Shown piece after piece: positions 4,796-28,994 of a DNA stretch of 51,814 bases. Every line of letters begins with the position of its first letter. Position 1 is the stretch's first letter. Under the pieces are notes generated by a model, which was not told where the DNA came from, did no database searches, and saw nothing but the letters and a program-made list of their open reading frames with translations. Where the stretch lies: NCBI GenBank assembly GCA_002069945.1, contig MWCH01000008.1, forward strand, positions 1 to 51,814, written 5' to 3'. Both the position numbers and the translations under genes were made by a program. Origin of the DNA: Microgenomates group bacterium ADurb.Bin219 (GTDB lineage: Bacteria; Patescibacteriota; Microgenomatia; UM-FILTER-40-11).

Positions 4796-5968
4796 ATGGA
4801 TAATATTCCTTTGGCGGAAAGATTAAGGCCGGAAAATTTGGATCAGTTTTTTGGCCAAGCTCATCTTGTCGGTCCAAGCGGGGTTCTTCGGAAATTAATA
4901 GAATCTGACCAATTGGTTTCCTTGATTTTTTGGGGCCCTCCGGGATCGGGAAAAACTTCTTTGGCCAGAATTGTGGCCAAAGCGACCAAAAGTCATTTTG
5001 AAAATTTTTCCGCCGTTACCGCCACTTTGGCAGATGTTCGTAAAGTAGTCGGTCAGGCAAAAGAAAGACTTAGGGGATATAACCAAAAAACCATTTTTTT
5101 CCTTGATGAAATTCACCGTTTCAATAAAGCCCAACAGGATGCTTTATTGCCTCACGTTGAAGACGGAACCATTATTTTAATCGGCGCAACAACGGAAAAT
5201 CCCTCTTTTGAAGTTATTTCTCCCCTTTTGTCGCGTTGCCGCGTCTTGGTTTTAAATCAACTGACGCCCGAGGATTTGGGAAAAATTTGCTTACGTGCAT
5301 TGGAAGAACTTAATCTTAAGATAAATAAAGAAGCGATCACTTTTTTAATCCAGTCAGCCAATGGTGACGCCCGAATAATCTTAAATACCCTGGAAATCGC
5401 TTCCAGAATCAGTAGCGGCAAAACATTGTCTTTAAAAGATATTGAAGAGTCCTTACAAAGACATTCTTTATCTTACGACCGAGTTGGCGAAGAACACTAC
5501 AATACGATTAGCGCTTTTATTAAAAGCGTGCGCGCTTCAGACCCTGACGCCGCCTTATATTATCTGGCGCGCATGGTTGAGGCCGGCGAAGACCCATTGT
5601 TTATTGCTCGCAGGATGGTTATTTTTGCCTCCGAAGATATCGGTGTTGCCCAGCCGACGGCCTTGGTGGTTGCCAATGCGGTTTTTCGGGCTTGCGAGAC
5701 GATCGGCTATCCCGAATGCCAGGAAAATCTGGCCCACGGGGTTATTTATCTTTGTTTGGCAAAGAAGGATAGAAGCGCTTACAATGCCTATTTTGCGGCT
5801 CTGGAAGATGTCAGGAGGCTTGGTAACCTGCCGATACCCCTAAATCTAAGGAATGCGCCCACCAAGCTTATGAAAGACCTTGGATACGGTCGAGGATATG
5901 AGCCTTACCCGAAAAAGAGCGAAAGTCTTCTTCCAGAGAAGCTAAAAAACAAAAAATACTTCAAATAA
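4796..5968 (+). CDS. rarA: Replication-associated recombination protein A (AAA+ ATPase)
   Basis: Full-length RarA/MgsA (390 residues), a tetrameric AAA+ ATPase related to clamp loaders that acts at stalled forks. Walker A GPPGSGKTS lies at about 47-55, Walker B FFLDEIHRFNKAQQD just after residue 100, sensor 1 IGATTENPSFE, and the arginine-finger region LLSRCRV. The C-terminal part has the conserved ASEDIGVAQP and KKDRSAYNAY segments. It is monocistronic, with its own leaderless-type promoter; a tRNA block follows. Confidence 0.95.
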   Translation: MDNIPLAERLRPENLDQFFGQAHLVGPSGVLRKLIESDQLVSLIFWGPPGSGKTSLARIVAKATKSHFENFSAVTATLADVRKVVGQAKERLRGYNQKTIFFLDEIHRFNKAQQDALLPHVEDGTIILIGATTENPSFEVISPLLSRCRVLVLNQLTPEDLGKICLRALEELNLKINKEAITFLIQSANGDARIILNTLEIASRISSGKTLSLKDIEESLQRHSLSYDRVGEEHYNTISAFIKSVRASDPDAALYYLARMVEAGEDPLFIARRMVIFASEDIGVAQPTALVVANAVFRACETIGYPECQENLAHGVIYLCLAKKDRSAYNAYFAALEDVRRLGNLPIPLNLRNAPTKLMKDLGYGRGYEPYPKKSESLLPEKLKNKKYFK

Positions 5969-5983
5969 CTTGATCCTCAGACT

Positions 5984-6013
5984 CTGGCACAAAATTGGTT
6001 GATGCGCTATAAT
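5984..6013 (+). promoter_or_regulatory. Promoter of the tRNA-Arg block
   Basis: CTGGCA 5984-5989, an 18-nt spacer and TATAAT 6008-6013. It is followed by the tRNA-like relic, tRNA-Arg and the small ORF, with no terminator between. Confidence 0.5.
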
Positions 6014-6057
6014 TGGTCATACTTTTGAGCAAATTAGACGAGGCTTTTAAAAGATTG

Positions 6058-6140
6058 GCCTCTGTAGCTCAATGGTAAGCGGAGCTTGTTTCTGGATTGT
6101 CGTCCAGAAATAGATCACCGGTCTTTGATAACGAAGGGGC
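6058..6140 (+). pseudogene. tRNA-like relic
   Basis: It begins like a tRNA: GCCTCTG, TA, a D-arm GCTC...GAGC with loop AATGGTAAGCG. Six of seven acceptor pairs can form with AAGGGGC at 6134-6140, which overlaps the first 2 nt of tRNA-Arg. The middle is instead an 8-bp stem TTTCTGGA/TCCAGAAA with a 6-nt loop, and no normal T-arm is seen. Probably a decayed or rearranged tRNA gene. Confidence 0.4.
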
Positions 6141-6212
6141 GCCTGTAGCTCAACTGGATAGAGCGCGTGGCTTCGGACCATGAGGTTAGGGGTTCAAGTC
6201 CCTTCAGGCGCA
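6139..6212 (+). tRNA. tRNA-Arg(TCG)
   Basis: Acceptor GCGCCTG/CAGGCGC, anticodon stem CGTGG/CCATG with loop CTTCGGA, T-loop TTCAAGT. CCA is not encoded. Confidence 0.95.
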
Positions 6213-6228
6213 CTCAGAAAGGAGAAAA

Positions 6229-6369
6229 ATGCAAATAAAAAAAGCCAAAGTCATTATGGAAGTTGAGATCGAAGGCAGAGAAGGCAAATTGGAATTTGAT
6301 CTCACCGACGAAGAATCTCAAAAAGTAATTGAGATTTTAAATAAGGATAAAGAATCTGGAGAAAAGTAA
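6229..6369 (+). CDS. Small acidic protein, 46 residues (hypothetical)
   Basis: ATG 6229 is preceded by a strong Shine-Dalgarno (AAAGGAGA, 6218-6225) with ideal spacing, and the frame ends at TAA 6367. The peptide begins MQIKKAKVIMEVEIEGREGK, continues LEFDLTDEESQKVIEILN and is highly charged. It looks like a beta-hairpin plus helix. It lies between tRNA-Arg and tRNA-Lys and is probably on the same transcript. No family recognised. Confidence 0.6.
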   Translation: MQIKKAKVIMEVEIEGREGKLEFDLTDEESQKVIEILNKDKESGEK

Positions 6370-6408: not shown

Positions 6409-6481
6409 GGGCCCGTAGCTCAGTTGGTAGAGCAGTTCCCTCTTAAGGAATTGGTCGAGCGTTCGAATCGCTCCGGGCTCA
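6409..6481 (+). tRNA. tRNA-Lys(CTT)
   Basis: Acceptor GGGCCCG/CGGGCTC, anticodon stem GTTCC/GGAAT with loop CTCTTAA, T-loop TTCGAAT. CCA is not encoded. Its last 16 nt recur at 7249-7264. Confidence 0.95.
6466..6481. repeat. att-like direct repeat, copy 1 (tRNA-Lys 3' end)
   Basis: The 16-nt sequence AATCGCTCCGGGCTCA at the 3' end of tRNA-Lys(CTT) is repeated exactly at 7249-7264. Duplication of a tRNA 3' end is the usual footprint of integrase-mediated insertion. Confidence 0.6.
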
Positions 6482-7177
6482 CTTTTTATCAGTATTGACT
6501 GAAAGATAACCCTCGTTTTCTTGGCAAATCGGAACAAGTGGATATTTGTTCAAAGTAAAAACCAGAGGAAAATTTTGGAAAATTTCCGGTTCCGATAAAC
6601 GAGACCTTTTATAATAGTTGTTTTTAACAAAGTCTTTAGCTTTTTGGGTGTAATTTTCAATAAAGTTTTTGCCTTCCAGTAAATTTTTTAAAGATAGGCC
6701 GGCATACCAATCCTCCCAGGATTTTTTATCGTTAAAACCCTTTTCGCCCGAAGCAACTAAATCAATTTCTCCAATTTCTTGTTTTTTCAACCATTCGAAA
6801 ACAGAAAGCAAATTGTTAAAAGAGCAGGTAATCACCTTTTTAACTTTTTTTTGAATAAGATCCTCAATTACTCTTGAACCATTATTGCTCATGTACAAGA
6901 TTGTCTTGTTCTCCAAATCTAATTGGTTAATTAAATAGGGAAGATTGCGAGAATCAAAAAAATCATTGGGCAAATAAAAACTTTCACCAACAACAAGAGA
7001 GTCGGGAAATTTTTCTTTAAGCGTTAAGACATTATTTTCATTAACGATAAAAAGTTTTTGGGGATTTCGGGAAAGTATAAGACTAATGTTTGAAGTAGCG
7101 GCATAAACATCAAAAACGACACAAATATCAGCTGGCTTTTGGGGAGTTTCCCAAGACCAATAAAGATTGACCTTCAT
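6479..7177 (-). CDS. ComB-like 2-phosphosulfolactate phosphatase family protein
   Basis: A 232-residue protein resembling the ComB family: MKVNLYW start, CVVFDVYAATSNISLIL (compare VVIDVLRATTTI), VVGESF, a SNNGSRVI segment at the position of TTNGTRA, and a late SGEKGFNDKKSWEDWYAGLSLKNLL (compare G..G.fs.eD...AG.l...L). ComB hydrolyses 2-phosphosulfolactate in coenzyme M synthesis in archaea; no partner of that pathway is visible here, so the true substrate is uncertain. The stop codon shares bases 6479-6481 with the tRNA-Lys 3' end. A TATAAT sits 6 nt before ATG 7177. It lies between the two att-like repeats. Confidence 0.65.
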   Translation of the reverse strand: MKVNLYWSWETPQKPADICVVFDVYAATSNISLILSRNPQKLFIVNENNVLTLKEKFPDSLVVGESFYLPNDFFDSRNLPYLINQLDLENKTILYMSNNGSRVIEDLIQKKVKKVITCSFNNLLSVFEWLKKQEIGEIDLVASGEKGFNDKKSWEDWYAGLSLKNLLEGKNFIENYTQKAKDFVKNNYYKRSRLSEPEIFQNFPLVFTLNKYPLVPICQENEGYLSVNTDKK

Positions 7178-7248: not shown

Positions 7249-7264
7249 AATCGCTCCGGGCTCA
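7249..7264. repeat. att-like direct repeat, copy 2
   Basis: Exact 16-nt copy of the tRNA-Lys(CTT) 3' end (6466-6481), located in the gap between the ComB-like and viperin-like genes. Confidence 0.6.
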
Positions 7265-7292: not shown

Positions 7293-8159
7293 CTATTTTG
7301 ACCCAATAAACCAGCTGGTTCTTTCCCAATATGCCTTTTTATCAAATTGTGTAGTATTTTCCCAGATTTCTCTCCCCGACTGTTTTTTTAAATCTCCAAG
7401 AGGATAATCTTTTCCCCTCCTGGTAGTATAGACAATTCCATTAGGATCGATGCAAAAATAAGAATTTTCTAATTCCTTAATAGAAGCAAGATGTATTGAG
7501 CATTCGTCAGGCTTAAATAATGATTTAATTTTAGCCTTAACCTGATTAAACTCATGATTGGAGACCTCATATTTATCTTTATAGGCAAAAGAAGCGCTTC
7601 GAATAGGAAAAAACTGGAAAACCTTCCATCTTTTAATTTTGTATTTTTTTATTAATTGGGCGATATTTTCAATATCCTTGAAATTTTGTTTACACAAAAC
7701 AGTATTTATTTTTAGTTTATAATTGCCTGTCTTTAGTTGATCTAGTAATTTTATAACTTGGGAAAAATGTCCGGGAGGTCTTCCGACAAGAATTTGGTTT
7801 TCTTCGTTTGATCCGTCGAGGGGCAAAGTAATCCAATCTAAATTATCGCCAAAAAGCTTTAATTTTTCGGAGTTCAATAAAGAACCGTTGGTTATAATCA
7901 TGGTAATAATTTTTAAAGATTTGGCTTGTTTTAAAAGTTTTGGAAAATTTCCCGGCCAGAGAAGAGGTTCGCCTCCCGTAAAAGAGATTTTCCTTACTCC
8001 TGAGTTAGCAAGATTTTTTAGAATTATTTCGGCTTCCCTGTCGTTGATTTCTCTTTCGCTAAAAACTTTGAAGCAAAAAGGACAATTATAGTTACACTTA
8101 GAAGTTAATGACCAGGAAACGCTGATTAAAGGAAAATGATTTTTAATATTTGTAGTTAT
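7293..8159 (-). CDS. Viperin-like radical SAM enzyme, apparent ATA start
   Basis: Reading through from ATA 8159-8157 gives 288 residues. ISVSWSLTSKCNYNCPFCF carries the radical SAM cysteines (C22, C26, C29) in the form seen in viperins (CNYxCxFCF). KISFTGGEP, IITNGSLL, VGR (125-127), LKINTVL (K150, N152) and RWKVFQ (177-182) all align by eye with RSAD2/prokaryotic viperins, which turn CTP, GTP or UTP into 3'-deoxy-3',4'-didehydro nucleotides that block phage RNA polymerase. The first ATG (7901) lies after the cluster motif and cannot be the true start. TTGACA-17-TATAAA lies 7 nt before ATA, so initiation at a leaderless ATA is inferred; CTG 8162 is an alternative. A nearby radical SAM subfamily outside true viperins remains possible. 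Confidence 0.7.
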   Translation of the reverse strand: MTTNIKNHFPLISVSWSLTSKCNYNCPFCFKVFSEREINDREAEIILKNLANSGVRKISFTGGEPLLWPGNFPKLLKQAKSLKIITMIITNGSLLNSEKLKLFGDNLDWITLPLDGSNEENQILVGRPPGHFSQVIKLLDQLKTGNYKLKINTVLCKQNFKDIENIAQLIKKYKIKRWKVFQFFPIRSASFAYKDKYEVSNHEFNQVKAKIKSLFKPDECSIHLASIKELENSYFCIDPNGIVYTTRRGKDYPLGDLKKQSGREIWENTTQFDKKAYWERTSWFIGSK

Positions 8160-8166
8160 CAGTTAA

Positions 8167-8195
8167 TTTATAGCCGTACCCCTCGAAGGTGTCAA
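8167..8195 (-). promoter_or_regulatory. Promoter of the viperin-like gene
   Basis: On the minus strand, TTGACA (8195-8190), 17 nt and TATAAA (8172-8167); the 7 nt that follow reach ATA 8159. Consensus quality is high. Confidence 0.65.
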
Positions 8196-8415
8196 GTTAG
8201 AGTATAAAATTAATTTAACTTCAATATTACTTGACTTGCTGAATATTTTTGATAAAGTACTGATAAAAAAATCACCAAAAGCGGTGTTTGCTCTTTTATA
8301 CATACAAAAAGAAAGATGTAAATTACCCTCTACGTTTCGTTCTTGTTGTAATTACCGGATAAAAGTTACGGCTTGGATTGGTGATAGGACTAAAAAAAGA
8401 AAACAAGGAGGAAGC

Positions 8416-8715
8416 ATGGGTAAGGCTAAAGGAGCTACTTCTGACCAGGGTGTAGAACTTGGGGTGAAGTTCAAAAAAGGGGTGAAAGGAAAGCTGTGTC
8501 CTTTCTGTCAGGGAGAGAGAACAATGGAGGCCCTCTTTCTTAAAAATGATGTTAGGATGAAAGTTGATTGTCCGATTTGCGAAGGCAGAGGATTTCAAGA
8601 CCATCCCGCCGCGTGTCCAAAATGTCACGGGACAGGGACAGTAACTGAAATTGTGATGAACGGGCTTGAAGATGTCAGCTGCAGTTCTTGTCTCGGAACC
8701 GGTAGATTTATTTGA
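8416..8715 (+). CDS. DnaJ-type zinc-finger protein
   Basis: About 99 residues holding four CxxC knuckles: CPFCQGE, CPICEGRGF, CPKCHGTGT and CSSCLGTGR, the CxxCxGxG repeats of the DnaJ Zn-binding domain. There is no J domain or substrate-binding domain, so this is a stand-alone two-zinc module. The frame is open back to 8236, but ATG 8416 is chosen because AAGGAGG sits 6 nt before it. The preceding 160 nt would be a long 5' leader. Binding of a partner protein or RNA is plausible; function unknown. Confidence 0.7.
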   Translation: MGKAKGATSDQGVELGVKFKKGVKGKLCPFCQGERTMEALFLKNDVRMKVDCPICEGRGFQDHPAACPKCHGTGTVTEIVMNGLEDVSCSSCLGTGRFI

Positions 8716-8802: not shown

Positions 8803-9855
8803 TTATTTCTCGGGAATAACGTAATCGGTTGCCGGACCGGCGCCTCTTTTTTCCAAAGCTTTGATCTCTTCCAGCCTTTTGAGTTTGTCCTGGGCGGTCC
8901 TTTTGGGAATTCCCAGAATTTCTACCACGTCGGCGCTGGTGATTCTTCCCAGGCTGACAACAAAATCAATAATTTTCAACTCATCCTTGTCCAAAACATT
9001 CCGGCTGGTTTTAAGATCGCCGACCGCCGAAAGACTTAAAATTTGGTCTTTCACCTTTCGGGTCTCGTTTAAAAACCCTTCAATGTAATAACCAAGCCAA
9101 TTGCTTAAATCCACTTTTTGTCTTTTGGCAAAGGTCTCCCCTGTTTGTAAGGCTTCATAATAGGCTTTGCGGTTTTGGTTATAATAATCTTCCAGAATCA
9201 AAACTTTTTTAAAATCCCAGCCCGACTGATAAAGATGAAGCAAGGATAAAAGCCGGCCGCAGCGGCCGTTGCCGTCAGTAAAAGGATGGATGGTTTCAAA
9301 TTGATAATGGAATAGGCCGGCGCGGATAATCGGGTGAATTTCCTTTTTTCCATGAAGCCAAAAAACCAATTCGCGCATATGGACAGGAACACTGGCCGCT
9401 TCCGGCGGAGTATAAGCCAATTCTTCTTTATTGTCGGGCAGAATGTTGACAACATAAACCGGTCCTTTTCGGAACCGGCCGATTTTTTCTTTATCAATCA
9501 GGCCGTCAACAACGATTTTATGCAGATTCAAAATATCTTCGACGTCAAAATCCTTTTTTTCGGCGGAAAGCTTGTCAATAAAACGCAGGGCTGTTAAATA
9601 GTTTTTAACTTCTTTTATTTGGTCTTCGGCGGCGTTGATATTCTTTCCTTCCGCTACTTGAGCAACCTGAAATTCTTTTAAAGCATTTCCTTCGATAGAC
9701 GTTGAAGTATGCGCCATTTTAATAACAGCCGCCCTTCTCAAAAAAACTTCCCTTTCGGGTAAAAGCTTGGATCGGCCAACCAAAGACTTGATTTCGGCAA
9801 TTTCCGTCAGGGAATTAAGTATTTTGTCGGAAATTGAATATTTGGGAGCAAACAT
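8803..9855 (-). CDS. Fic family AMP-transferase with C-terminal winged helix
   Basis: A 350-residue class II Fic protein. The N-terminal inhibitory helix motif STSIEG (51-56) precedes the Fic core motif HPFTDGNGRCGR (190-201), with catalytic His and the phosphate-binding GNGR. An HTH-like C-terminus (ITSADVVEILGIPKRTAQDKLKRLEEI) suggests DNA binding. These enzymes usually transfer AMP to target proteins and are held inactive by their own inhibitory helix. A TATAAT lies 6 nt before ATG 9855. The gene is bracketed by matching iteron repeats; copy B overlaps the promoter, so autoregulation through the winged helix is inferred. Confidence 0.9.
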   Translation of the reverse strand: MFAPKYSISDKILNSLTEIAEIKSLVGRSKLLPEREVFLRRAAVIKMAHTSTSIEGNALKEFQVAQVAEGKNINAAEDQIKEVKNYLTALRFIDKLSAEKKDFDVEDILNLHKIVVDGLIDKEKIGRFRKGPVYVVNILPDNKEELAYTPPEAASVPVHMRELVFWLHGKKEIHPIIRAGLFHYQFETIHPFTDGNGRCGRLLSLLHLYQSGWDFKKVLILEDYYNQNRKAYYEALQTGETFAKRQKVDLSNWLGYYIEGFLNETRKVKDQILSLSAVGDLKTSRNVLDKDELKIIDFVVSLGRITSADVVEILGIPKRTAQDKLKRLEEIKALEKRGAGPATDYVIPEK

Positions 9856-12990: not shown

Positions 12991-13461
12991 ATGGGTATAG
13001 GCTTAAATATTAACGAATTTCCAGACATAATGATATTTATTTTTTTGTGCTGGGTAATTTTCTTGATAATTAAATTTCTTTGGGACCTTCTTTTTTGGAG
13101 TCTTAAAGAGGAAAAGCGACAAAAGACAAAATTCGAATTGTATGATAATCACCCTAAAGATAGAATCATCCCGGAGTTTGAATTCTGGAAAAAGAACGTT
13201 GAACCGCTACATAGAAATGATTATTTTATTCCTCCCGATTGGGGCATAAGAAGGAAGTACGTAGCAAATTTGTATAATTTTAAATGCGCAATTTGTAGAA
13301 AAAAGGTGTTATTAGGACACACTCACCACATAAATCCTCTTGAAAATGGCGGTACAAGCGCCATAAGTAACCTTGTTTATTTATGTAGAAGTTGTCATGA
13401 AGATCAACATGAACACCTGGAACAACGAAAAAAGCAAAGAATTAATGCTGCAAAAAATTAG
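12991..13461 (+). CDS. Membrane-anchored HNH endonuclease
   Basis: 156 residues: a hydrophobic helix (about residues 12-36, IFIFLCWVIFLIIKFLWDLLF), a charged linker, then an HNH domain with paired cysteines CAIC, the core GHTHHINPLENGGTSAISNLVYLC and CRSCHEDQHEH. The His pair and Cys4 zinc set look intact, so nuclease activity is likely. GGGAG lies 8 nt before ATG 12991. A membrane-tethered HNH protein is unusual; cleaving incoming DNA or a role in DNA uptake is speculative. Confidence 0.75.
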   Translation: MGIGLNINEFPDIMIFIFLCWVIFLIIKFLWDLLFWSLKEEKRQKTKFELYDNHPKDRIIPEFEFWKKNVEPLHRNDYFIPPDWGIRRKYVANLYNFKCAICRKKVLLGHTHHINPLENGGTSAISNLVYLCRSCHEDQHEHLEQRKKQRINAAKN

Positions 13462-20363: not shown

Positions 20364-21575
20364 TTATCTAGGTTTTCCGATCCAAGAGCATAGATAGTCT
20401 TTATGAACCAGAGTTATATCTTGGTCTATTTGTGGATTTTGAGGAAAATGATTTGTAAGTTGATAATCCCTGGGACAGTAAGGGTCCTTAACAAATAAAC
20501 TTCTTTTGCCAGTTTGATGTGCGTGGTGTAGATATGATCTGGAGGCACATCCTCCTCTACACTTATCAATTAGACTGCAATCACGACATTCAACAATGGC
20601 TTCGGGGTGAGCATTTCGCCGCCTGAAGGTTTTGAATTGTGGAGATTCGATGATGTCTGGTAGCTTATCTTTTGTAAGATCCCCAGCTTTATAGTCATGA
20701 AGGTAAACGCAAGGGGAAACAGGTATTTTCCCATCTGGGGTCATCGAGTGAATCCTAAAGGAAGTTCTACCACAAGGGCATCCTTTTGCGCCTTCATAGT
20801 TCGTGACCGTTGCCAATGGCGGTTCACCCAGGTCAACAGGGTCGCACAGGTTCATCAGTAAAGAAAAACCTTCATAAAATTGCTGTCCTGTTAGAACGAG
20901 GCTCATGTGTTCAGGTTCGACTGGTTTTATTGTATTTATACGCACATTGGCATCAAATTTTCTGGCGGTATCAACAAGAGCTTTAATTCTATCTGGGGTA
21001 AAATTCCAGTTCATGGCGCACATTACGATTGTCCTATCAATTTCGTGTTCTCTTGCCAAAGAGAGAGCTTTTATTGCTTGAGAATATAAAGCAGCGCCCC
21101 TATTTCTGTTATGTTCTTCGGGGGAAGGAGAGTCCAAACTAACGTCAATGTCATTCAAGAGATTAAATTGTTGGGGATAGTCTTCTTCAAGATAAACAAC
21201 GCTTATGCCAGATGTGGTCAAGCCGACCAAAATATTATGAGCAACCAACCCATTGATAATATAGGGCAGAAGAGTGTTTCTACGATCCAGCCCGTTTGTA
21301 AAGAAAGGCTCGTTCCCCCCAAGGTTAACAGTTGTTACGCCTACTCTAGACAATTGATCTATTATTCGATCAATAATTTGAGGAGTAAGGTTTGCGCCTC
21401 TTTCTCTAGCTGACAAGGAATAACATTGTGGGCACTCATAAGGGCATGCATTTCCTAAGGTCCAACCGACATTTCTAATGTCAGTTTGACATTCTTCAAG
21501 CTCGTCGTGTTCGATAGGTCCAACCTCTCGTGTATAATGTTCCCTGGGATCTATTTGTTTAATTTCAGGCGACAT
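20364..21575 (-). CDS. Radical SAM/SPASM enzyme 1
   Basis: 403 residues. NACPYECPQCY gives the radical SAM cysteines C44, C48 and C51, followed by NLGGNEPFF in place of GGEP. A C-terminal SPASM-type cluster region has CPCG, CVYL, CRDCSLIDKCRGGC and DPYC, enough ligands for auxiliary Fe-S clusters. Members modify peptides or oxidise small alcohols and amino-sugars. It is divergent from the phosphorylase across a shared promoter region and is the only minus-strand gene of the island. Confidence 0.8.
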   Translation of the reverse strand: MSPEIKQIDPREHYTREVGPIEHDELEECQTDIRNVGWTLGNACPYECPQCYSLSARERGANLTPQIIDRIIDQLSRVGVTTVNLGGNEPFFTNGLDRRNTLLPYIINGLVAHNILVGLTTSGISVVYLEEDYPQQFNLLNDIDVSLDSPSPEEHNRNRGAALYSQAIKALSLAREHEIDRTIVMCAMNWNFTPDRIKALVDTARKFDANVRINTIKPVEPEHMSLVLTGQQFYEGFSLLMNLCDPVDLGEPPLATVTNYEGAKGCPCGRTSFRIHSMTPDGKIPVSPCVYLHDYKAGDLTKDKLPDIIESPQFKTFRRRNAHPEAIVECRDCSLIDKCRGGCASRSYLHHAHQTGKRSLFVKDPYCPRDYQLTNHFPQNPQIDQDITLVHKDYLCSWIGKPR

Positions 21576-21587
21576 CTTGGCCCTTTC

Positions 21588-21616
21588 TTGATAATTGGCA
21601 TATTATAAGATATAAT
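21588..21616 (+). promoter_or_regulatory. Island operon promoter (plus strand)
   Basis: TTGATA 21588-21593, 17 nt, TATAAT 21611-21616, about 31 nt before ATG 21648. Confidence 0.65.
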
Positions 21617-21630
21617 CCAAATTAATTCAA
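21602..21630 (-). promoter_or_regulatory. Radical SAM 1 promoter (minus strand)
   Basis: On the minus strand, TTGAAT (21630-21625), 17 nt and TATAAT (21607-21602). It interlocks with the plus-strand promoter, so the two must compete. Confidence 0.6.
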
Positions 21631-21647
21631 AATATATCAATTTTGCG

Positions 21648-22544
21648 ATGATGAGTATGGATAAAAATAAAGAAACTACCCCTGTCTTAAGTGACGCAAA
21701 CATTAAACTTCCAATAGAGATAGGAATTGTGGGAAGATTTGATGCAAAACTTCTTAAGCATAATTTCAGAAGGGTGATGATTCCAACAGAGTATGGTTTA
21801 ATGGATCGGGCTTTTTATGGAGAGGTAGATGGACGCACGATTTTAGTAATTTATGGAAGATTTGATAAAACCAGAAGTCTTTCTGAAGATATTAATTTTG
21901 AGAAAACACAAGCAGCATTCAACACTGCTGGTATAAAAACAATCATTGGGACCTTTGTAACTGGGGGTATCCAAAAAAAATACGATATTGGAAGTGTTTT
22001 TATAATTAGCGACTTAGTAGGAATTGGGGGTTATCGGCAGAGTCTTTATAAAAAGACGGGTTTCAAGAATGTAGATATGTATAAACCGTTTTGCGATGAA
22101 CTTAGAAGTGCGTTGATTAAAGGAGCTAAGGAGTGCGATTTCGAAGTTAACTCTTCTGGTATTTATGTTTGCTTTCATGGCTATCCAAGGATTGAAACAA
22201 AGGCAGAGCTTGATCATTATGAAAATATGGGTTGGGATATAGTTGGGCAAACTCTTGATCCTGAAGCGACGCTAGCTAGAGAATCTGGTTGTTGCTACGC
22301 CGCAGTAGCAGTGACAATTGACGACCCAAAAACAAGGGGAGAATTTTTGAGTGGAGACGAAAAAGCACGAAAGAAAACCCAGAATGCTATCCCTGAAGGT
22401 AGAATTAAGACTACTCAGGTTGTCTTCAACACTATAAAACACATTCCTCCACTAAAAAGAAGAAAATGTGTTTGTGGTCATAAGTTCCATAGCGAGAAGA
22501 GTCATTTTAGATACCTTCCCGACTATATTTTGGACTCCAAATAA
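21648..22544 (+). CDS. MTA/purine nucleoside phosphorylase family protein
   Basis: 298 residues. IEIGIVGRF replaces the usual IGIIGGSG. SGIYVCFHGYPRIETKAELDHYENMGWDI followed by VGQTLDPEATLARESGCCYA is the classic substrate pocket of MTAP/PNP enzymes (GPRFET, GMT.PEA.LARE). These enzymes phosphorolyse 5'-methylthioadenosine or related nucleosides. Beside two radical SAM enzymes it may remove 5'-deoxyadenosine, their inhibitory by-product (inference). An unusual C-terminal CVCGHKFHSEKSH may bind metal. The stop overlaps the next ATG as TAATG. Confidence 0.75.
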   Translation: MMSMDKNKETTPVLSDANIKLPIEIGIVGRFDAKLLKHNFRRVMIPTEYGLMDRAFYGEVDGRTILVIYGRFDKTRSLSEDINFEKTQAAFNTAGIKTIIGTFVTGGIQKKYDIGSVFIISDLVGIGGYRQSLYKKTGFKNVDMYKPFCDELRSALIKGAKECDFEVNSSGIYVCFHGYPRIETKAELDHYENMGWDIVGQTLDPEATLARESGCCYAAVAVTIDDPKTRGEFLSGDEKARKKTQNAIPEGRIKTTQVVFNTIKHIPPLKRRKCVCGHKFHSEKSHFRYLPDYILDSK

Positions 22545-22624
22545 TGCTAAAAGAAGTTGAGGTAAAAGATTATTTCAAGCGAGAGGGGACTGTAGCTGAT
22601 TGGTAGAATCCTGAGACTTCTGAT

Positions 22625-23029
22625 ATGTCACATATCTACGCAAGGCAGTTAGATCTGGTTTTGGAGTGGTTAGATAGGGGCAGAGTCAAAAAGGTACTTG
22701 ACGCCTCATGTGGTAAAGGCAGAGCAATAAAAAGGTTACACCACACATATTATGTTACAGGAGTAGATATTTCTAGAGAAATGCTAGAACATGTAAAAGA
22801 TCTAGAACTTGATAGAGTAGATTTGGTTCGGGCTGATGTTGACAAGCTTCCCTTTGATTCTAGTGTCTTTGACAGCGTGCTCTGCTTAGAAGCCCTTGTT
22901 CATTATCCAAATCCAAGAATAGCTTTGGGGGAGTTTAGGAGAGTGTTGAGACCTCACGGCTTATTGATTGTTGATGTCGACAATGAAAATTCACTTAAAC
23001 GATTAGTAAAAAAGAGTGGGATACATTAA
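22625..23029 (+). CDS. Methyltransferase, N-terminal ORF
   Basis: The 134-residue open part with SAM-binding motif I (VLDASCGKG) and the VLCLEALVHYPNP region. It lacks the C-terminal strands needed for a complete fold. It ends shortly after the slippery heptamer. See the combined entry 22544-23316. Confidence 0.6.
   Translation: MSHIYARQLDLVLEWLDRGRVKKVLDASCGKGRAIKRLHHTYYVTGVDISREMLEHVKDLELDRVDLVRADVDKLPFDSSVFDSVLCLEALVHYPNPRIALGEFRRVLRPHGLLIVDVDNENSLKRLVKKSGIH
23008..23014 (+). promoter_or_regulatory. Candidate -1 ribosomal frameshift site A-AAA-AAG
   Basis: The zero-frame codons are GTA AAA AAG (23006-23014), the same heptamer phase as E. coli dnaX. A -1 slip continues GAG TGG GAT ACA into the downstream ORF. 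I see no strong stimulatory hairpin or upstream Shine-Dalgarno. Confidence 0.4.
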
Positions 23030-23034
23030 GTAAA

Positions 23035-23316
23035 TTGTTCGAAAGGGACTTTCATCCTATGAGTGAAGGTATCTTTCGAGCATATACAGAGTTAGGGTTT
23101 AGAAGGCTTATTGAAGAAAGCGGTTTTGCTCTACAGGATATCGCTCGTCTAGGAGTTATAGTGCCTACGAATCTTCATCTGCCAGGTGGTCGAAAAATAA
23201 CTATAATAAGTCACAAGTTTTCAAAATCATCGGCTCATTTAGATCAGTTTTTGGAAACTTTTCCTCTTACAAGTTACCTGTCCACTTATACAATTGCTTT
23301 GTGTGAAAGAATCTAG
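23035..23316 (+). CDS. Methyltransferase, C-terminal ORF
   Basis: A 93-residue frame holding the last strands (FRRLIEESGFALQDI) typical of UbiE-like methyltransferases. Its only start (TTG 23035) has no signal, so it is probably reached by frameshift or is dead. Confidence 0.5.
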   Translation: MFERDFHPMSEGIFRAYTELGFRRLIEESGFALQDIARLGVIVPTNLHLPGGRKITIISHKFSKSSAHLDQFLETFPLTSYLSTYTIALCERI

Positions 23317-23384
23317 ATTTTTATTTTTGTCAATGACTCTGAGGCTAGCTAATTTCAGGTCTAGTTTGATATACTTTACGGTAT

Positions 23385-24542
23385 ATGAAGAAAAGATCAA
23401 TTACTATGCCTTTATATAAGGGCGGAAGTATATGTAATATCTTGCCCACAATTGCAGAATACAACTCCATTAAAACTTCTGATAGGGTTGAAAGATACAC
23501 CCTAGAGAAAGAAACCAGAGTTAAATTTATTGAAAAATTGAGGGAAGCAAAAAGAATAGTTATTTTAGAGGTCGATGCTTTAGCTTACGATTTATTTGCC
23601 AGAATAAAAAAAGGGTATGGTTTTTTAGAAGATTCAATAAAAATATCTTCAGTTTTTCCGACCTATACTCATACTGCATTCGCAAGCTTCATTACAGGAG
23701 CTAGTCCTTCGAAACACGGTGTTGTTGCAGGCACTTTTATGAAAGACGGGGTGGTCGATTGGATGGGTAACCTAAGTAAATCCGAGAAATTTTCCAGAAA
23801 TCTAATTACTTGTGAATCTTTGCTGCAAAATTTCAACAAGCAAGGGAAAAAAGTAGTCTCGATTCTTTATGATGTCAATGATGATAATTTTTCAAGATAT
23901 CTTTATCCGAATCCAATTTTTGTGTCCAGTAAAAGTTCTGCTCAAATTTTGATTGAACAGGCATATGATGTGGAAAAAAGAGTTTTCAAGAAAATATTAG
24001 AGTTTGCACCTCGTGATTTTTACATTCTTTCAGCCTATTTTTGGTTTCTTGATGGCGTGAGCGGGGAGTATGGAAAGTTTAATAAAGAAACATTTAATTA
24101 CCTTAAGTTCTTTTTTAGAAGAGTTGAACACTTAATGAAAAAATTTCCTAGAAAAACATTATTTGTAATTATGGGCGACCATGGTCACACAAGTCTTAGG
24201 AAAACTATTGTGATTGATCAGAAGAGTGTCGAGAAAATTAACCAAATATCTAAGTCGCAATTTGCCCTGGACGGAAGAGTAATGATGTTCTATTCCCAAA
24301 ATCCGAATTTAACAAGAAGGTTGTTTAATGAGGAGGCAGGAAGCTTTGTGGAAGAGATGTCGAAAAATAATTATGTTCGTCTTATTGGAGGAAGATGCGA
24401 GGTTGAGGATAGAATTGGTAATCTAATTTTTTTAGCTAAGCCTCACTACACTGTTAGATTAAAGCCCAAAAAGAAAAAAGCCACCCATGGAGGACTAAGT
24501 AAGGAAGAGATGCAAACAGTTTTCGGATTTTTTATGAACTAA
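23385..24542 (+). CDS. Type I phosphodiesterase/nucleotide pyrophosphatase-like enzyme
   Basis: 385 residues of the alkaline phosphatase superfamily. IVILEVDALAYDLF gives the first metal Asp; SSVFPTYTHTAFASFITGAS has the nucleophile Thr and the FPT...TG.xPxxHGV pattern; VIMGDHGH supplies the second metal set; THGGLSKEEM near the end gives the last His. Such enzymes cleave phosphodiester or pyrophosphate bonds of nucleotides or nucleotide sugars. No signal peptide, so it acts in the cytoplasm. Two nt separate it from the next gene. Confidence 0.75.
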   Translation: MKKRSITMPLYKGGSICNILPTIAEYNSIKTSDRVERYTLEKETRVKFIEKLREAKRIVILEVDALAYDLFARIKKGYGFLEDSIKISSVFPTYTHTAFASFITGASPSKHGVVAGTFMKDGVVDWMGNLSKSEKFSRNLITCESLLQNFNKQGKKVVSILYDVNDDNFSRYLYPNPIFVSSKSSAQILIEQAYDVEKRVFKKILEFAPRDFYILSAYFWFLDGVSGEYGKFNKETFNYLKFFFRRVEHLMKKFPRKTLFVIMGDHGHTSLRKTIVIDQKSVEKINQISKSQFALDGRVMMFYSQNPNLTRRLFNEEAGSFVEEMSKNNYVRLIGGRCEVEDRIGNLIFLAKPHYTVRLKPKKKKATHGGLSKEEMQTVFGFFMN

Positions 24543-24544
24543 AA

Positions 24545-25615
24545 ATGTCAACAATAGAAAGATTGGAAGAAATAGATCTCAATATAACTAATAGGTGTAA
24601 TATAGGTTGCTCGCATTGTTTATTCGCTGCAGGACCAGAAAAAGATGATAATCTCTCACTTGGAGAGATAGAAAGTGTGTTGGAAGACGGCAGGAAACTT
24701 GGGGCAGAGGAGGTTCATATATCTGGAGGTGAGCCTACTGTCAGGAGGGATCTTGAAAAAGTTTTAAGAATTGCAGATAGTAAAGGATACTTCGTAAGGC
24801 TTCAAACGAATATGTGGGCTTTTACACCAAAGATGCTGCCCTTGATAATGGAAACGACAGATGAGGTTCTCACCAGCCTAGACGGTCTTGAGGCCTCTCA
24901 CGATCTAATAAGAAAACCTGGTTCGTTTCAGAAAACAACCAGCTCGATTGACCGTTTGTTAGAAGTTGGGATTCGAGTTGTTGTAATAACCGCTGTACAG
25001 AGAAAGAATTATCAAGATATTCCAAAACTTGTTGAATTTGTTTCGAATAGAGAGGTAAATGCTCATTTTCTCTTTAGTATTACGCCCTTAGGTCGAGCTA
25101 CCCAGGAAGATGTTGTTTCGGTTATTGAGTGGGAGAAATTAGTGGAGAAACTCTATGAAACATATAAAGCTAGAGATTTATCAACCGATGTGGTGTGTGA
25201 GCTACATCACTTAAGAGGAGATGAATCTTTTACCTTTAACGGCGCTGAATGTAGATTGTATACGAGGAACCATGCAGTAGTCTTGCCTGACGGTAGAGTT
25301 TATCCGTGTTCAATGTTTATTACCACTGATAAATTTCTGGGAAATATCAAAAAGGAACCCTTCGAAGAAATTTGGAGCAATTCACCAGTGTGGAGTTTCT
25401 ACGATAATCGAATAAATGATCCTAGTTGTGGTAACTGCAAATTAATTGCTCTTTGTAAAGGAGGTTGCCCTGGTTATTCATACTTTTTTACGGGAGATAT
25501 TACCAAGTGTGATCCACGTTGCGAGCCTGGTATGTATCCAGTGTGTCCGTCATGGAAACTGAATTTAAGAAAAGCTACCCTCTCCTGCTCCACTTGGCGG
25601 GTAATGAAAAGATAA
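24545..25615 (+). CDS. Radical SAM/SPASM enzyme 2
   Basis: 356 residues. DLNITNRCNIGCSHCLF gives C18, C22 and C25, VHISGGEPTVR the SAM-binding GGEP. The SPASM part has PDGRVYPCSMF, LGNIKKEPFEEIW, and CGNCKLIALCKGGCPGYSYF with later Cys residues. It differs from enzyme 1 in the core, so they probably catalyse successive steps. MoaA/PqqE-like maturases and BtrN-like dehydrogenases share this architecture; the substrate is unknown. Confidence 0.85.
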   Translation: MSTIERLEEIDLNITNRCNIGCSHCLFAAGPEKDDNLSLGEIESVLEDGRKLGAEEVHISGGEPTVRRDLEKVLRIADSKGYFVRLQTNMWAFTPKMLPLIMETTDEVLTSLDGLEASHDLIRKPGSFQKTTSSIDRLLEVGIRVVVITAVQRKNYQDIPKLVEFVSNREVNAHFLFSITPLGRATQEDVVSVIEWEKLVEKLYETYKARDLSTDVVCELHHLRGDESFTFNGAECRLYTRNHAVVLPDGRVYPCSMFITTDKFLGNIKKEPFEEIWSNSPVWSFYDNRINDPSCGNCKLIALCKGGCPGYSYFFTGDITKCDPRCEPGMYPVCPSWKLNLRKATLSCSTWRVMKR

Positions 25616-25639
25616 CAATTTATTTTATAATGTTTTAAA

Positions 25640-26617
25640 ATGATTAGGGAACCCATAGATATTATAATCGTGACCTGGAATGCCTGCGATTATACCAGAT
25701 ATTGCCTCGATAGTATTAGGAGTCACACCGACTATCCGTATAATCTTATAGTAGTTGATAATGGTTCTATTGATGGAACCATTGACTATTTGGAGAGACA
25801 AGATGATGTTCTCCTTATTCAAAATCGAGAGAACTTGGGATATGGAGGAGCTATAACACGAGGTTACGAGGTGGGAGATAGTCATCTAACCTGTGTTATG
25901 AATAACGATATTGTGGTTTCTCCAGGGTGGCTTGAGCCCATGGTGAGAATTATGAGGCAAGACAGAGAGATTGGCATTCTTGGGACACTAAGACCAGCCA
26001 GTTTTTGTTTGCATCCCGATGGACAAAGAGATACGGGTTTAGTGCTGAGAGAAACCAGAGGATATAAACTTCCAGACCCAGAAGTTTGGTTAGAACAGTT
26101 TTGCTCTCCTTATACTTATGAGGATTTTGTCGAAGAGGCAAAAAGGATAAACAATTTTGGTTTAAGAGAAATTGAAGGACCGCCATCTTTTATTAGCACA
26201 TGCTGTGTCCTTGTTAATAGAGAAATAATCGATAGAATAGGTGGTCTAGCAGACCCTAGGTTTTTTAGATACGGATGCGAAGATGTGGATCTCTCTTGGA
26301 GGATCTCAATAGAAGGTTATAAAATTGCGCTTACCTCCGAAGCCTATGTACATCATTTTAAGCATGTAAGCGTTGAGGTTAGTGATCTTGACAGAAAAGC
26401 ATCGACCGAGGGGAATATGAGAATTTTCTATGAGAAGTGGAGAAACGAAATTAATCGATTTTTGACTGCCAAATTAAGTGAGGGAGTAGATGTAAAAAAA
26501 AGACTAGGTGAAGAAGATCCAGATTATTGGTTCCTAGCAAGACTTGAAGGAATGATAGGAGCAGAAAAGTTTTGGCAGTCAGTTGAAAGAGTAAAATCTG
26601 GAAAGGAGCGAATATGA
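25640..26617 (+). CDS. Family 2 glycosyltransferase
   Basis: 325 residues, GT-A fold. IDIIIVTWNACDYTRYCLDS begins the nucleotide-sugar site, VVDNGSIDGT follows, and MNNDIVVSPGW carries the DxD-like metal motif. FRYGCEDVDLSWR is the acceptor-side ED motif of rhamnosyl- and similar transferases. No membrane anchor. A TATAAT lies 8 nt before the ATG, so it may also start separately. It overlaps the next gene by 4 nt (ATGA). Confidence 0.85.
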   Translation: MIREPIDIIIVTWNACDYTRYCLDSIRSHTDYPYNLIVVDNGSIDGTIDYLERQDDVLLIQNRENLGYGGAITRGYEVGDSHLTCVMNNDIVVSPGWLEPMVRIMRQDREIGILGTLRPASFCLHPDGQRDTGLVLRETRGYKLPDPEVWLEQFCSPYTYEDFVEEAKRINNFGLREIEGPPSFISTCCVLVNREIIDRIGGLADPRFFRYGCEDVDLSWRISIEGYKIALTSEAYVHHFKHVSVEVSDLDRKASTEGNMRIFYEKWRNEINRFLTAKLSEGVDVKKRLGEEDPDYWFLARLEGMIGAEKFWQSVERVKSGKERI

Positions 26618-27477
26618 CGCCAGAATACAACAAAAGACTAACAGAAACTTTAATCCAAGGGCATGTTTCAGTGGATAACATAAGAGAGATTTTAAGAAAA
26701 GAAGGTTTGCATTTGTCGGATGATTCAGTGAGAAATATTGCCTACGGGATAATGGTTTTTAGGGAGATTGGAGGAGAACTATTCCAAGAACCATTTTTTA
26801 TCTATGGGTCTACAGCTAAGGGCACGGCTGGTGTCGAGCCTAAGATTCAAGAGATACAATACTGGAAGGATTTACACTTCTTGGGAAGCACATTTCGAAT
26901 TTATGGCATGAGCGATCTGGATATAAGATGTGTTGCTCAGGATCCGCAAGGCGTGTTTGAAATTATAGCGAAATCGAAAGACAATCTTTCACCCTTTACC
27001 CTCAGACCTGTAGGTATTAGAGTGGACAACATTCAGGATGTTGAGGATGATATTAAAAGGACAGATGCGCCCTCTTTCTATAGAAGAGTCTTACTTCTTA
27101 ACTCCCCAATAGTCTTGAGTGGACAAGATACTTTGGGGACGCTTACTGAAGTTGGTAGAGATTATCTGTCACAAGTTGATGAGACTTATGAAAAAGAGAT
27201 GGCAGAAGCTAGAAAGATAGTAAGAAGTAGGTTGGAAGGTTCTGTCGCAACATTTCTGGATTCTGGTGAACTATCTGGGAGATTTCCAGTTTTTTATTCC
27301 GAAAGGAATCTAATAATTAAAAATTTCCAGAGGACTCATTCTTTTAAGATTTCCTTTAGCTTGAGGGAGAGTTCGCTAGTTGTAGTTGAGGTGAATAGCG
27401 AGAAGGATTGCTCTAGACATCATCTAAGGGTTTGTGATAATCCAAGCACTCCTTTTAACGAGATAAATAATATCTAG
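26614..27477 (+). CDS. Nucleotidyltransferase-like protein
   Basis: 287 residues. FFIYGSTAKGTAG and YGMSDLDIRCV form the GS...SDLD active-site pair of Pol-beta-fold nucleotidyltransferases, split by an unusual 30-residue insertion. Unlike the gene at 18900 it keeps its Asp residues, so it is probably active, adding a nucleotide to a small molecule, protein or RNA. A later VVVEVNSEKDC segment may hold the third Asp or Glu. Last gene of the island operon. Confidence 0.65.
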   Translation: MTPEYNKRLTETLIQGHVSVDNIREILRKEGLHLSDDSVRNIAYGIMVFREIGGELFQEPFFIYGSTAKGTAGVEPKIQEIQYWKDLHFLGSTFRIYGMSDLDIRCVAQDPQGVFEIIAKSKDNLSPFTLRPVGIRVDNIQDVEDDIKRTDAPSFYRRVLLLNSPIVLSGQDTLGTLTEVGRDYLSQVDETYEKEMAEARKIVRSRLEGSVATFLDSGELSGRFPVFYSERNLIIKNFQRTHSFKISFSLRESSLVVVEVNSEKDCSRHHLRVCDNPSTPFNEINNI

Positions 27478-28615: not shown

Positions 28616-28688
28616 GCCGGGATAGCCAAGGTAGTCACGGCGCGTGTCTGAAAAACATGAGATCTCAGTGCAACTCTGGGTCCCGGCA
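28616..28688 (+). tRNA. tRNA-Phe(GAA), unusual T-loop
   Basis: Acceptor GCCGGGA/TCCCGGC, anticodon stem CGTGT/ACATG with loop CTGAAAA. The T-loop is TGCAACT, with G at position 55. The D-stem has only 3 bp. Confidence 0.9.
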
Positions 28689-28724
28689 CATCTCACCTAT
28701 TTGTTCGATGCAAGCCATCTTAAA

Positions 28725-28994
28725 ATGAACTTTGTTTATGTTATTAAGTGTAATAACGGAAAGTATTACACAGGAATAACAAATAATTTAAAAAAGAGAA
28801 CAACAGAACACTGTTTAGGAAAGGGATCTCTTTTTACAAAGTCTCATTTGCCTGTAAAGTTGGTATATTTTGAAAATTTTTTATCAAGGTACGATGCTGC
28901 CCAAAGAGAGAAAGTGATAAAAGATATGAGTCAAAAGAAAAAGCTGGCGTTGATTAAAAAGTTTACATCGAGCGATAGCGAGATGCGGAAGTAG
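28725..28994 (+). CDS. GIY-YIG nuclease-domain protein (YhbQ/UPF0213-like)
   Basis: About 89 residues from ATG 28725, chosen because the GIY-YIG fold begins at once: FVYVIKCNNGKYYTGITNNL supplies both tyrosines and LKKRTTEHCLG the catalytic Arg, followed by a conserved Glu in QREKVIK. The frame opens earlier, but that part is the tRNA-Phe antisense-like sequence. The stop lies inside tRNA-Gly (28985). Wedged between two tRNA genes, it may be a mobile or homing-like nuclease. Confidence 0.8.
   Translation: MNFVYVIKCNNGKYYTGITNNLKKRTTEHCLGKGSLFTKSHLPVKLVYFENFLSRYDAAQREKVIKDMSQKKKLALIKKFTSSDSEMRK

What the first reader, a model, noticed from the sequence alone, without database searches (positions are those of the whole stretch)
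7293..8159. Viperin-like radical SAM enzyme in a CPR genome, starting at a leaderless ATA codon
The CNYNCPFCF cluster motif, LKINTVL, VGR and RWKVFQ segments line up with viperin, an antiviral enzyme making chain-terminating nucleotides. No ATG, GTG or TTG lies upstream of the cluster motif. A near-consensus promoter (TTGACA-17-TATAAA) puts the transcript start about at ATA 8159, the same 6-7 nt spacing as other leaderless genes here. Either a rare AUA start or a start-loss mutation in a defence gene.
Basis: partly seen in the sequence, partly recalled or inferred. Interest (0 to 1): 0.85.

Follow-up and report, generated by a model that had tools for sequence, protein, structure and literature searches.

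The report
Viperin-like enzyme gene lacking start codon
A tiny bacterium of the Candidate Phyla Radiation carries an intact-looking gene for a close cousin of the antiviral enzyme viperin, with the nucleotide-gripping residues kept but several viperin-specific ones changed, and the gene has no usual start codon, so it may be barely made or recently switched off.

Summary
A 289-codon open frame at 7293-8162 (-) encodes a radical SAM protein with CNYNCPFC, GGEP, VGR, KINTV, RWKVFQ and SY motifs. No ATG, GTG or TTG precedes the first internal ATG at 7901, past the cluster motif. A TTGACA-17-TATAAA promoter ends 7 nt before ATA 8159, and leaderless spacing of 6-7 nt is real in this genome.

The protein passes NCBI's viperin cut-off narrowly (182.7 vs 180 bits) and its predicted fold matches viperin (Z 31). 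In three trees it lies outside all sampled canonical viperins, as a sister lineage (well supported in two). It keeps all six positions I recall as triphosphate contacts plus the conserved Tyr, but lacks four residues that nearly all sampled viperins keep. I read it as a viperin-like nucleotide enzyme of unknown substrate, in a variable tRNA-Lys island with a SoFic gene.

ATA shows no excess at leaderless positions genome-wide (4 seen, 3.7 expected), and non-AUG leaderless starts are poor in E. coli. An in-frame ATT (8147) fits homologue N-termini better. Start loss from a leaderless ATG is my leading reading; a weak rare start or a consensus error is not excluded. New variant of a known kind.

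The parts
7293..8162 (-). Viperin-like radical SAM gene, 289 open codons from the first codon after the TAA stop
   Evidence: AlphaFold pLDDT 91.7, pTM 0.89
8190..8195 (-). -35 box TTGACA (exact)
8167..8172 (-). -10 box TATAAA, 17-nt spacer
8160..8162 (-). In-frame CTG, first codon after the stop; only 4 nt after the -10 box
8157..8159 (-). In-frame ATA, 7 nt after the -10 box; probable site of a lost leaderless ATG, or a rare AUA start
8145..8147 (-). In-frame ATT; would give an N-terminus of homologue-like length (first cluster Cys at residue 18; homologue median 16)
8073..8096 (-). CxxxCxxC motif for the [4Fe-4S]/SAM cluster (CNYNCPFC)
   Evidence: cysteines invariant in all relatives
7899..7901 (-). 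First canonical start codon (ATG); a product from here lacks the cluster motif
6479..7177 (-). ComB-like (2-phosphosulfolactate phosphatase family) gene with its own leaderless TATAAT-6-ATG; function here unknown
   Evidence: PF04029, 6.1e-23; below NCBIfam cut-offs; sequence
8803..9855 (-). SoFic-like Fic gene
   Evidence: SoFic 4.8e-63; Fic
8410..8715 (+). Small zinc-ribbon protein with DnaJ-type CxxCxGxG repeats
6409..6482 (+). tRNA-Lys(CTT) bounding the variable segment
7249..7264 (+). Second exact copy of 16 nt from the 3' end of tRNA-Lys (AATCGCTCCGGGCTCA), just downstream of the viperin-like gene; att-like repeat
   Evidence: only two copies in the genome

Best explanation
This is an intact-looking gene for a viperin-like radical SAM enzyme, a sister lineage of canonical viperins, carried in a variable segment between tRNA-Lys and a conserved gene, next to a SoFic gene. 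The enzyme most likely holds a nucleoside triphosphate by the same phosphate-binding residues as viperin and uses a SAM-derived radical with the conserved tyrosine to alter the sugar, as viperin does when it makes 3'-deoxy-3',4'-didehydro NTPs; its base or substrate choice probably differs, because residues fixed in viperins are changed. Its promoter is of the genome's leaderless type, and the codon at the expected 5' end, ATA, is most likely a former ATG. As it stands the gene is probably translated very weakly or not at all. Shown: frame, motifs, phylogenetic place on present sampling, missing start, promoter-like sequence, synteny. Predicted: fold. Inferred: NTP binding, chemistry, defence role, start loss.
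For: Family: NF038283 182.7 bits (cut-off 180) and PADLOC pVip 1.9e-56; other CPR relatives score 92-112, canonical viperins 223-299. Fold: top PDB hits are viperins, Z 31.4 to UTP-bound mouse viperin against 24.5 for the best non-viperin; the alignment used was rich in viperins. Residues: K120, R194, K220, N222, R245, K247 and Y302 (mouse numbering) all kept, a set that none of G078, G139, G305 or G055 keeps; H79, S180, S183 and E293 changed. Place: viperin clade excludes it at 100/99 and 99/96. Start: no canonical start; promoter 7 nt from ATA; leaderless ATG 42 observed vs 4.8 expected, GTG 5 vs 1.3, ATA 4 vs 3.7. Island: in same-family genome G002 the order rarA, tRNA-Arg, tRNA-Lys, GH-like gene, obg lacks the viperin-like, ComB-like, zinc-ribbon and Fic genes there; tRNA-Lys 3'-end repeat at 7249.
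Against: Narrow NCBIfam margin; non-viperin residues at four viperin-fixed positions; no nucleotide kinase next door, as several pVips have. The nearest CPR relatives lie in contexts that do not look like defence (argS and a glycosyltransferase; SAM decarboxylase and BpsA). Start loss is inferred from one assembly: no close homologue or second strain was found to compare, and the first tree gave the viperin-only split just 41/0 support.
Confidence: 0.5

Rival explanations
1. A functional gene translated from a rare start codon: leaderless AUA at 8159, or AUU at 8147 twelve nt from the 5' end, giving low expression of a potentially self-harming nucleotide-analogue maker.
For: Frame intact with ordinary coding composition; promoter near-consensus; ATT gives a homologue-like N-terminus and residues 1-4 counted from ATA are poorly ordered in the model; 5' end predicted unstructured.
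Against: No excess of ATA or ATT at leaderless positions genome-wide; non-AUG leaderless starts work poorly or not at all in E. coli (PMC9031893); no Shine-Dalgarno before ATT (sequence).
Confidence: 0.22
2. A consensus or assembly error (or minor-strain allele) hides an ordinary ATG; the gene is normal.
For: The genome is a 22-contig assembly, apparently from a metagenome (my inference); ATA and ATT are each one base from ATG; no other plausible long gene in the sampled genome lacks a start this way.
Against: No other sign of error in the frame; no independent sequence was available to me either way.
Confidence: 0.18
3. A canonical prokaryotic viperin (pVip) making ddh-nucleotides, merely divergent.
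For: Above the NCBIfam cut-off; PADLOC pVip match; joining it to the viperins as one group is not rejected (AU 0.597); nesting with the archaeal viperin not strictly rejected (AU 0.057).
Against: Viperin-only clade at 100/99 and 99/96; grouping with cyanobacterial viperins rejected (AU 0.001); E293, S180 and H79 invariant in 30 sampled viperins but changed here.
Confidence: 0.25
4. A CPR radical SAM enzyme of unrelated function (for example cell-envelope or polyamine chemistry) that only resembles viperin in sequence.
For: Shares P180 and G183 with CPR relatives whose neighbours are argS and a glycosyltransferase, or polyamine genes; G078 is 34.7% identical.
Against: Those relatives lack several of K120, R194, K220, N222, R245 and K247 that this protein keeps; its viperin score is about 70 bits above theirs.
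Confidence: 0.2

Closest known systems
Prokaryotic viperins (pVip; NCBIfam NF038283; PADLOC pVip)
   Same: CxxxCxxC, GGEP, GR, KxNTV, RWKVFQ, SY motifs; single-domain length; viperin fold predicted; sits near another defence-type gene
   Different: Outside the sampled viperin clade; H79, S180, S183 and E293 (mouse numbering) changed; no adjacent nucleotide kinase; no canonical start codon
Mouse viperin/RSAD2 (PDB 6q2p, 6q2q)
   Same: Best fold match (Z 31.4, rmsd 2.2 A over 271 residues); positions recalled as triphosphate contacts conserved
   Different: 27% identity; no N-terminal extension; other viperin-fixed residues differ
CPR viperin-adjacent radical SAM proteins (G078/G139 beside argS and a glycosyltransferase; G055 beside SAM decarboxylase and BpsA)
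   Same: PLDG motif, W[KR]xxQ, conserved Tyr; 34.7% identity to G078
   Different: They lack several of the phosphate-contact residues; other gene contexts; ordinary ATG starts

Membership tests
Radical SAM superfamily | CxxxCxxC cluster motif and Radical_SAM domain | tested here: met
   PF04055 80.3 bits vs cut-off 29.5; motif invariant
Viperin (NF038283) | Score above NCBI's curated cut-off (180 bits) | tested here: met
   182.7 bits, narrow margin
Viperin | Falls inside the clade of known viperins | tested here: inconclusive
   Excluded (100/99; 99/96); 41/0; AU 0.057 for nesting with the archaeal viperin; Asgard and most archaeal viperins not sampled
Viperin | Residues I recall as triphosphate contacts (K120, R194, K220, N222, R245, K247) and Tyr302 | tested here: met
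   All present; the structural papers were not held, so the contact roles rest on memory. A conserved tyrosine as proton/electron donor is given in PMC9642334
Viperin | Other residues fixed or nearly fixed in sampled viperins (H79, S180, S183, E293) | tested here: not met
   S, P, G, A in this protein. H79 is F in one natural fungal viperin-like enzyme solved with CTP (9dfn)
Viperin | Makes ddhNTP from an NTP | not testable with these tools
   Needs enzyme assay
pVip defence system | Protects against phage | not testable with these tools
   Needs phage assay in a laboratory strain
pVip defence system | Nucleotide kinase neighbour (common, not universal) | tested here: not met
   Neighbours are ComB-like, zinc-ribbon and Fic genes
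Leaderless gene | -10 box 6-7 nt before an ATG/GTG start | tested here: not met
   Spacing of 7 nt met, but the codon there is ATA

The most novel reading that the evidence does not exclude
A stem-lineage viperin relative that modifies a nucleotide other than CTP, GTP or UTP and is truly expressed from a leaderless AUA (or near-5' AUU) start, the poor start serving to hold a self-harming antiviral enzyme at a low level in a CPR bacterium.
Probability: 0.1. Interest if true: 0.75.

Novelty: new variant of a known kind. Interest (0 to 1): 0.45.

Why it matters
A protein that keeps viperin's presumed phosphate grip but not its other fixed residues could show how viperin arose from generic radical SAM enzymes, and might make a new nucleotide analogue. 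Viperin is very rare in this phylum: among 379 phylum genomes and 373 class genomes sampled (overlapping sets), only this one passed the cut-off. The missing start either documents decay of a defence-type gene in a mobile-looking island or a rare start codon on a leaderless mRNA.

Tried and rejected
Chance ORF: rejected (curated family matches, intact motifs). Upstream start in frame: ATG 8303 and TTG 8195 are cut off by the TAA at 8165. CTG 8162 as start: only 4 nt after the -10 box, and CUG starts are very weak (0.86% of AUG; PMC11497404). A -10 box 6-7 nt before ATT: none by eye. A dedicated AUA-reading initiator tRNA: a tRNA-Ile(TAT) exists but does not look like an initiator; the usual initiator was not identified with confidence in the 803 kb held. 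Rfam element near the gene: only tRNA-Lys. Close homologues for a selection test: none in genome contigs (5 distant hits) or by direct viral scan. The generic promoter scan missed the site because it demands T at the last -10 position. Foldseek against viral proteins gave general radical SAM hits, no viperin by name. ComB-like gene in G001/G002: no match, with no positive control.

Full report
OBSERVATION. The minus-strand frame at 7293-8162 is open for 289 codons, bounded upstream by TAA at 8165-8163. The first ATG, GTG or TTG in frame is ATG 7901, past the CxxxCxxC motif. In-frame near-start codons are CTG 8162, ATA 8159 and ATT 8147. A TTGACA-17-TATAAA promoter ends 7 nt before the ATA.

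IS LEADERLESS INITIATION REAL HERE? I took 803 kb of the 892-kb genome as stretches (joined). TATAAT-like boxes peak exactly 6 and 7 nt before ATG (60 and 53, background about 16). With a -35 match required, ATG at that position is seen 42 times against 4.8 expected, GTG 5 against 1.3, but ATA 4 against 3.7 and ATT 7 against 10.3. This genome therefore uses leaderless ATG and some GTG, with no sign that ATA or ATT is a habitual start. Sites with at most one mismatch to the full promoter number 45, of which 15 lie 6-7 nt before ATG/GTG/TTG, so the promoter is credible but not proof. Among 604 coding-like frames no other plausible long gene shows this lack of a start (the other entries were judged by eye).

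WHICH CODON? Promoter spacing points to ATA 8159. N-terminal length points to ATT 8147: in 28 relatives, with starts assigned by me at a nearby ATG, the first cluster cysteine is at residue 13-24, median 16; it would be residue 18 from ATT, 22 from ATA and 23 from CTG. In the predicted structure residues 1-4 counted from ATA are below pLDDT 50, and structural matches to viperins begin at about residue 8. The two cues disagree, which fits a lost start as well as a rare start. In E. coli, leaderless translation starts at AUG, with GUG, UUG and CUG much weaker or inactive (PMC9031893); CUG yields 0.86% of AUG in one data set (PMC11497404). I did not find a measured value for AUA.

WHAT PROTEIN? 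NF038283 (prokaryotic viperin) is the best NCBIfam model at 182.7 bits, just over its 180-bit cut-off; the next is the other viperin model at 90.5 bits, far below its own cut-off. PADLOC calls pVip at 1.9e-56. AlphaFold2 gives pLDDT 91.7 and pTM 0.89; the top solved structures are viperins (Z 31.4, rmsd 2.2 A over 271 residues, against 24.5 for the best non-viperin). The input alignment was rich in viperins, which helps such a match.

IS IT INSIDE THE VIPERIN CLADE? On present sampling, no. Three trees were built. In the first the viperin-only split had weak support (41/0). After several long-branched outgroups were dropped and viral-contig viperins added, 30 viperins including mouse formed a clade without it at 100/99; with three CPR relatives only as outgroup, 99/96. 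Holding it with the cyanobacterial viperins was rejected (AU 0.001); with the archaeal viperin, borderline (0.057). Asgard and most archaeal viperins were not available to me. The later two row sets were chosen after seeing the first result, and long branches remain.

RESIDUES. At mouse-viperin positions this protein has K120, R194, K220, N222, R245, K247 and Y302. It differs at H79 (S), S180 (P), S183 (G) and E293 (A), fixed or nearly fixed in 30 viperins; N77 is S here and in 3 of 30. H79 is F in a natural fungal viperin-like enzyme solved with CTP (9dfn), so that change alone need not abolish binding. That the first six contact the triphosphate is my recollection of the mouse structure; those papers were not held. 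The CPR relatives G078, G139, G305 and G055 each lack several of these residues.

SURROUNDINGS. Upstream lie a small zinc-ribbon gene and a Fic gene matching SoFic at 4.8e-63. Downstream is a ComB-like gene with its own leaderless TATAAT-6-ATG. In G002, of the same family, rarA, tRNA-Arg and tRNA-Lys are followed by the homologues of the window's 9921-11312 gene and obg, without any of these four genes between. G002 does carry a Fic relative elsewhere. The window also holds a second exact copy of 16 nt from the 3' end of tRNA-Lys at 7249-7264, the only two copies in the genome, as integration at a tRNA gene would leave. The G002 locus itself carries GIY-YIG-like frames among broken tRNA-Lys halves. 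So the segment is a variable, probably mobile island at tRNA-Lys. Only this genome passed the viperin cut-off among 379 phylum and 373 class genomes sampled (the sets overlap).

MECHANISM. Inferred: SAM cleavage at the [4Fe-4S] cluster, radical abstraction from the sugar of a bound nucleoside triphosphate, loss of water with a conserved tyrosine as proton/electron donor (mechanism as summarised in PMC9642334), giving a nucleotide analogue. The substrate base may differ from CTP. A defence role rests on family and on the SoFic neighbour only.

VERDICT. New variant of a known kind: a sister-lineage viperin-like gene lacking a canonical start. Leading reading: start loss of a leaderless ATG, with very weak or no expression; a rare start or a consensus error cannot be excluded without reads, RNA ends or peptides.

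Noticed in passing
window 28644-28994 (+); L196 reverse complement about 5480-6260: A GIY-YIG frame (PF01541) lies between tRNA-Phe and tRNA-Gly, overlapping both as called; in G002 two GIY-YIG-like frames each follow a broken 5' half of tRNA-Lys, before an intact tRNA-Lys. GIY-YIG nucleases may target tRNA genes in this family.
   Followed up: partly
L100-L105, L107: Canonical-looking viperins on IMG/VR viral contigs; L101-L103 form their own small clade. Whether these are viral or host DNA was not checked.
   Followed up: partly
L014 and L015: Two CPR genomes share the order argS, short viperin-adjacent radical SAM (about 230 aa), glycosyltransferase: a conserved context of unknown function.
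   Followed up: partly
L185 3919-6510: In G055 the viperin-adjacent radical SAM gene lies between a SAM decarboxylase and a BpsA-type branched polyamine synthase, suggesting a radical SAM step in polyamine chemistry.
   Followed up: partly
window 20364-27477: Cluster with two further radical SAM genes, a methyltransferase-like, an alkaline-phosphatase-like and a glycosyltransferase-like gene (by eye); looks like a small biosynthetic locus.
   Followed up: no
L056: A viperin match in the Verrucomicrobiota-side search lies in a 740-aa open frame with about 460 residues before the domain, possibly a fusion.
   Followed up: no
window 12991-13461 (+): HNH endonuclease gene with weak similarity to ZorE, a few kb from the SoFic gene.
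   Followed up: no
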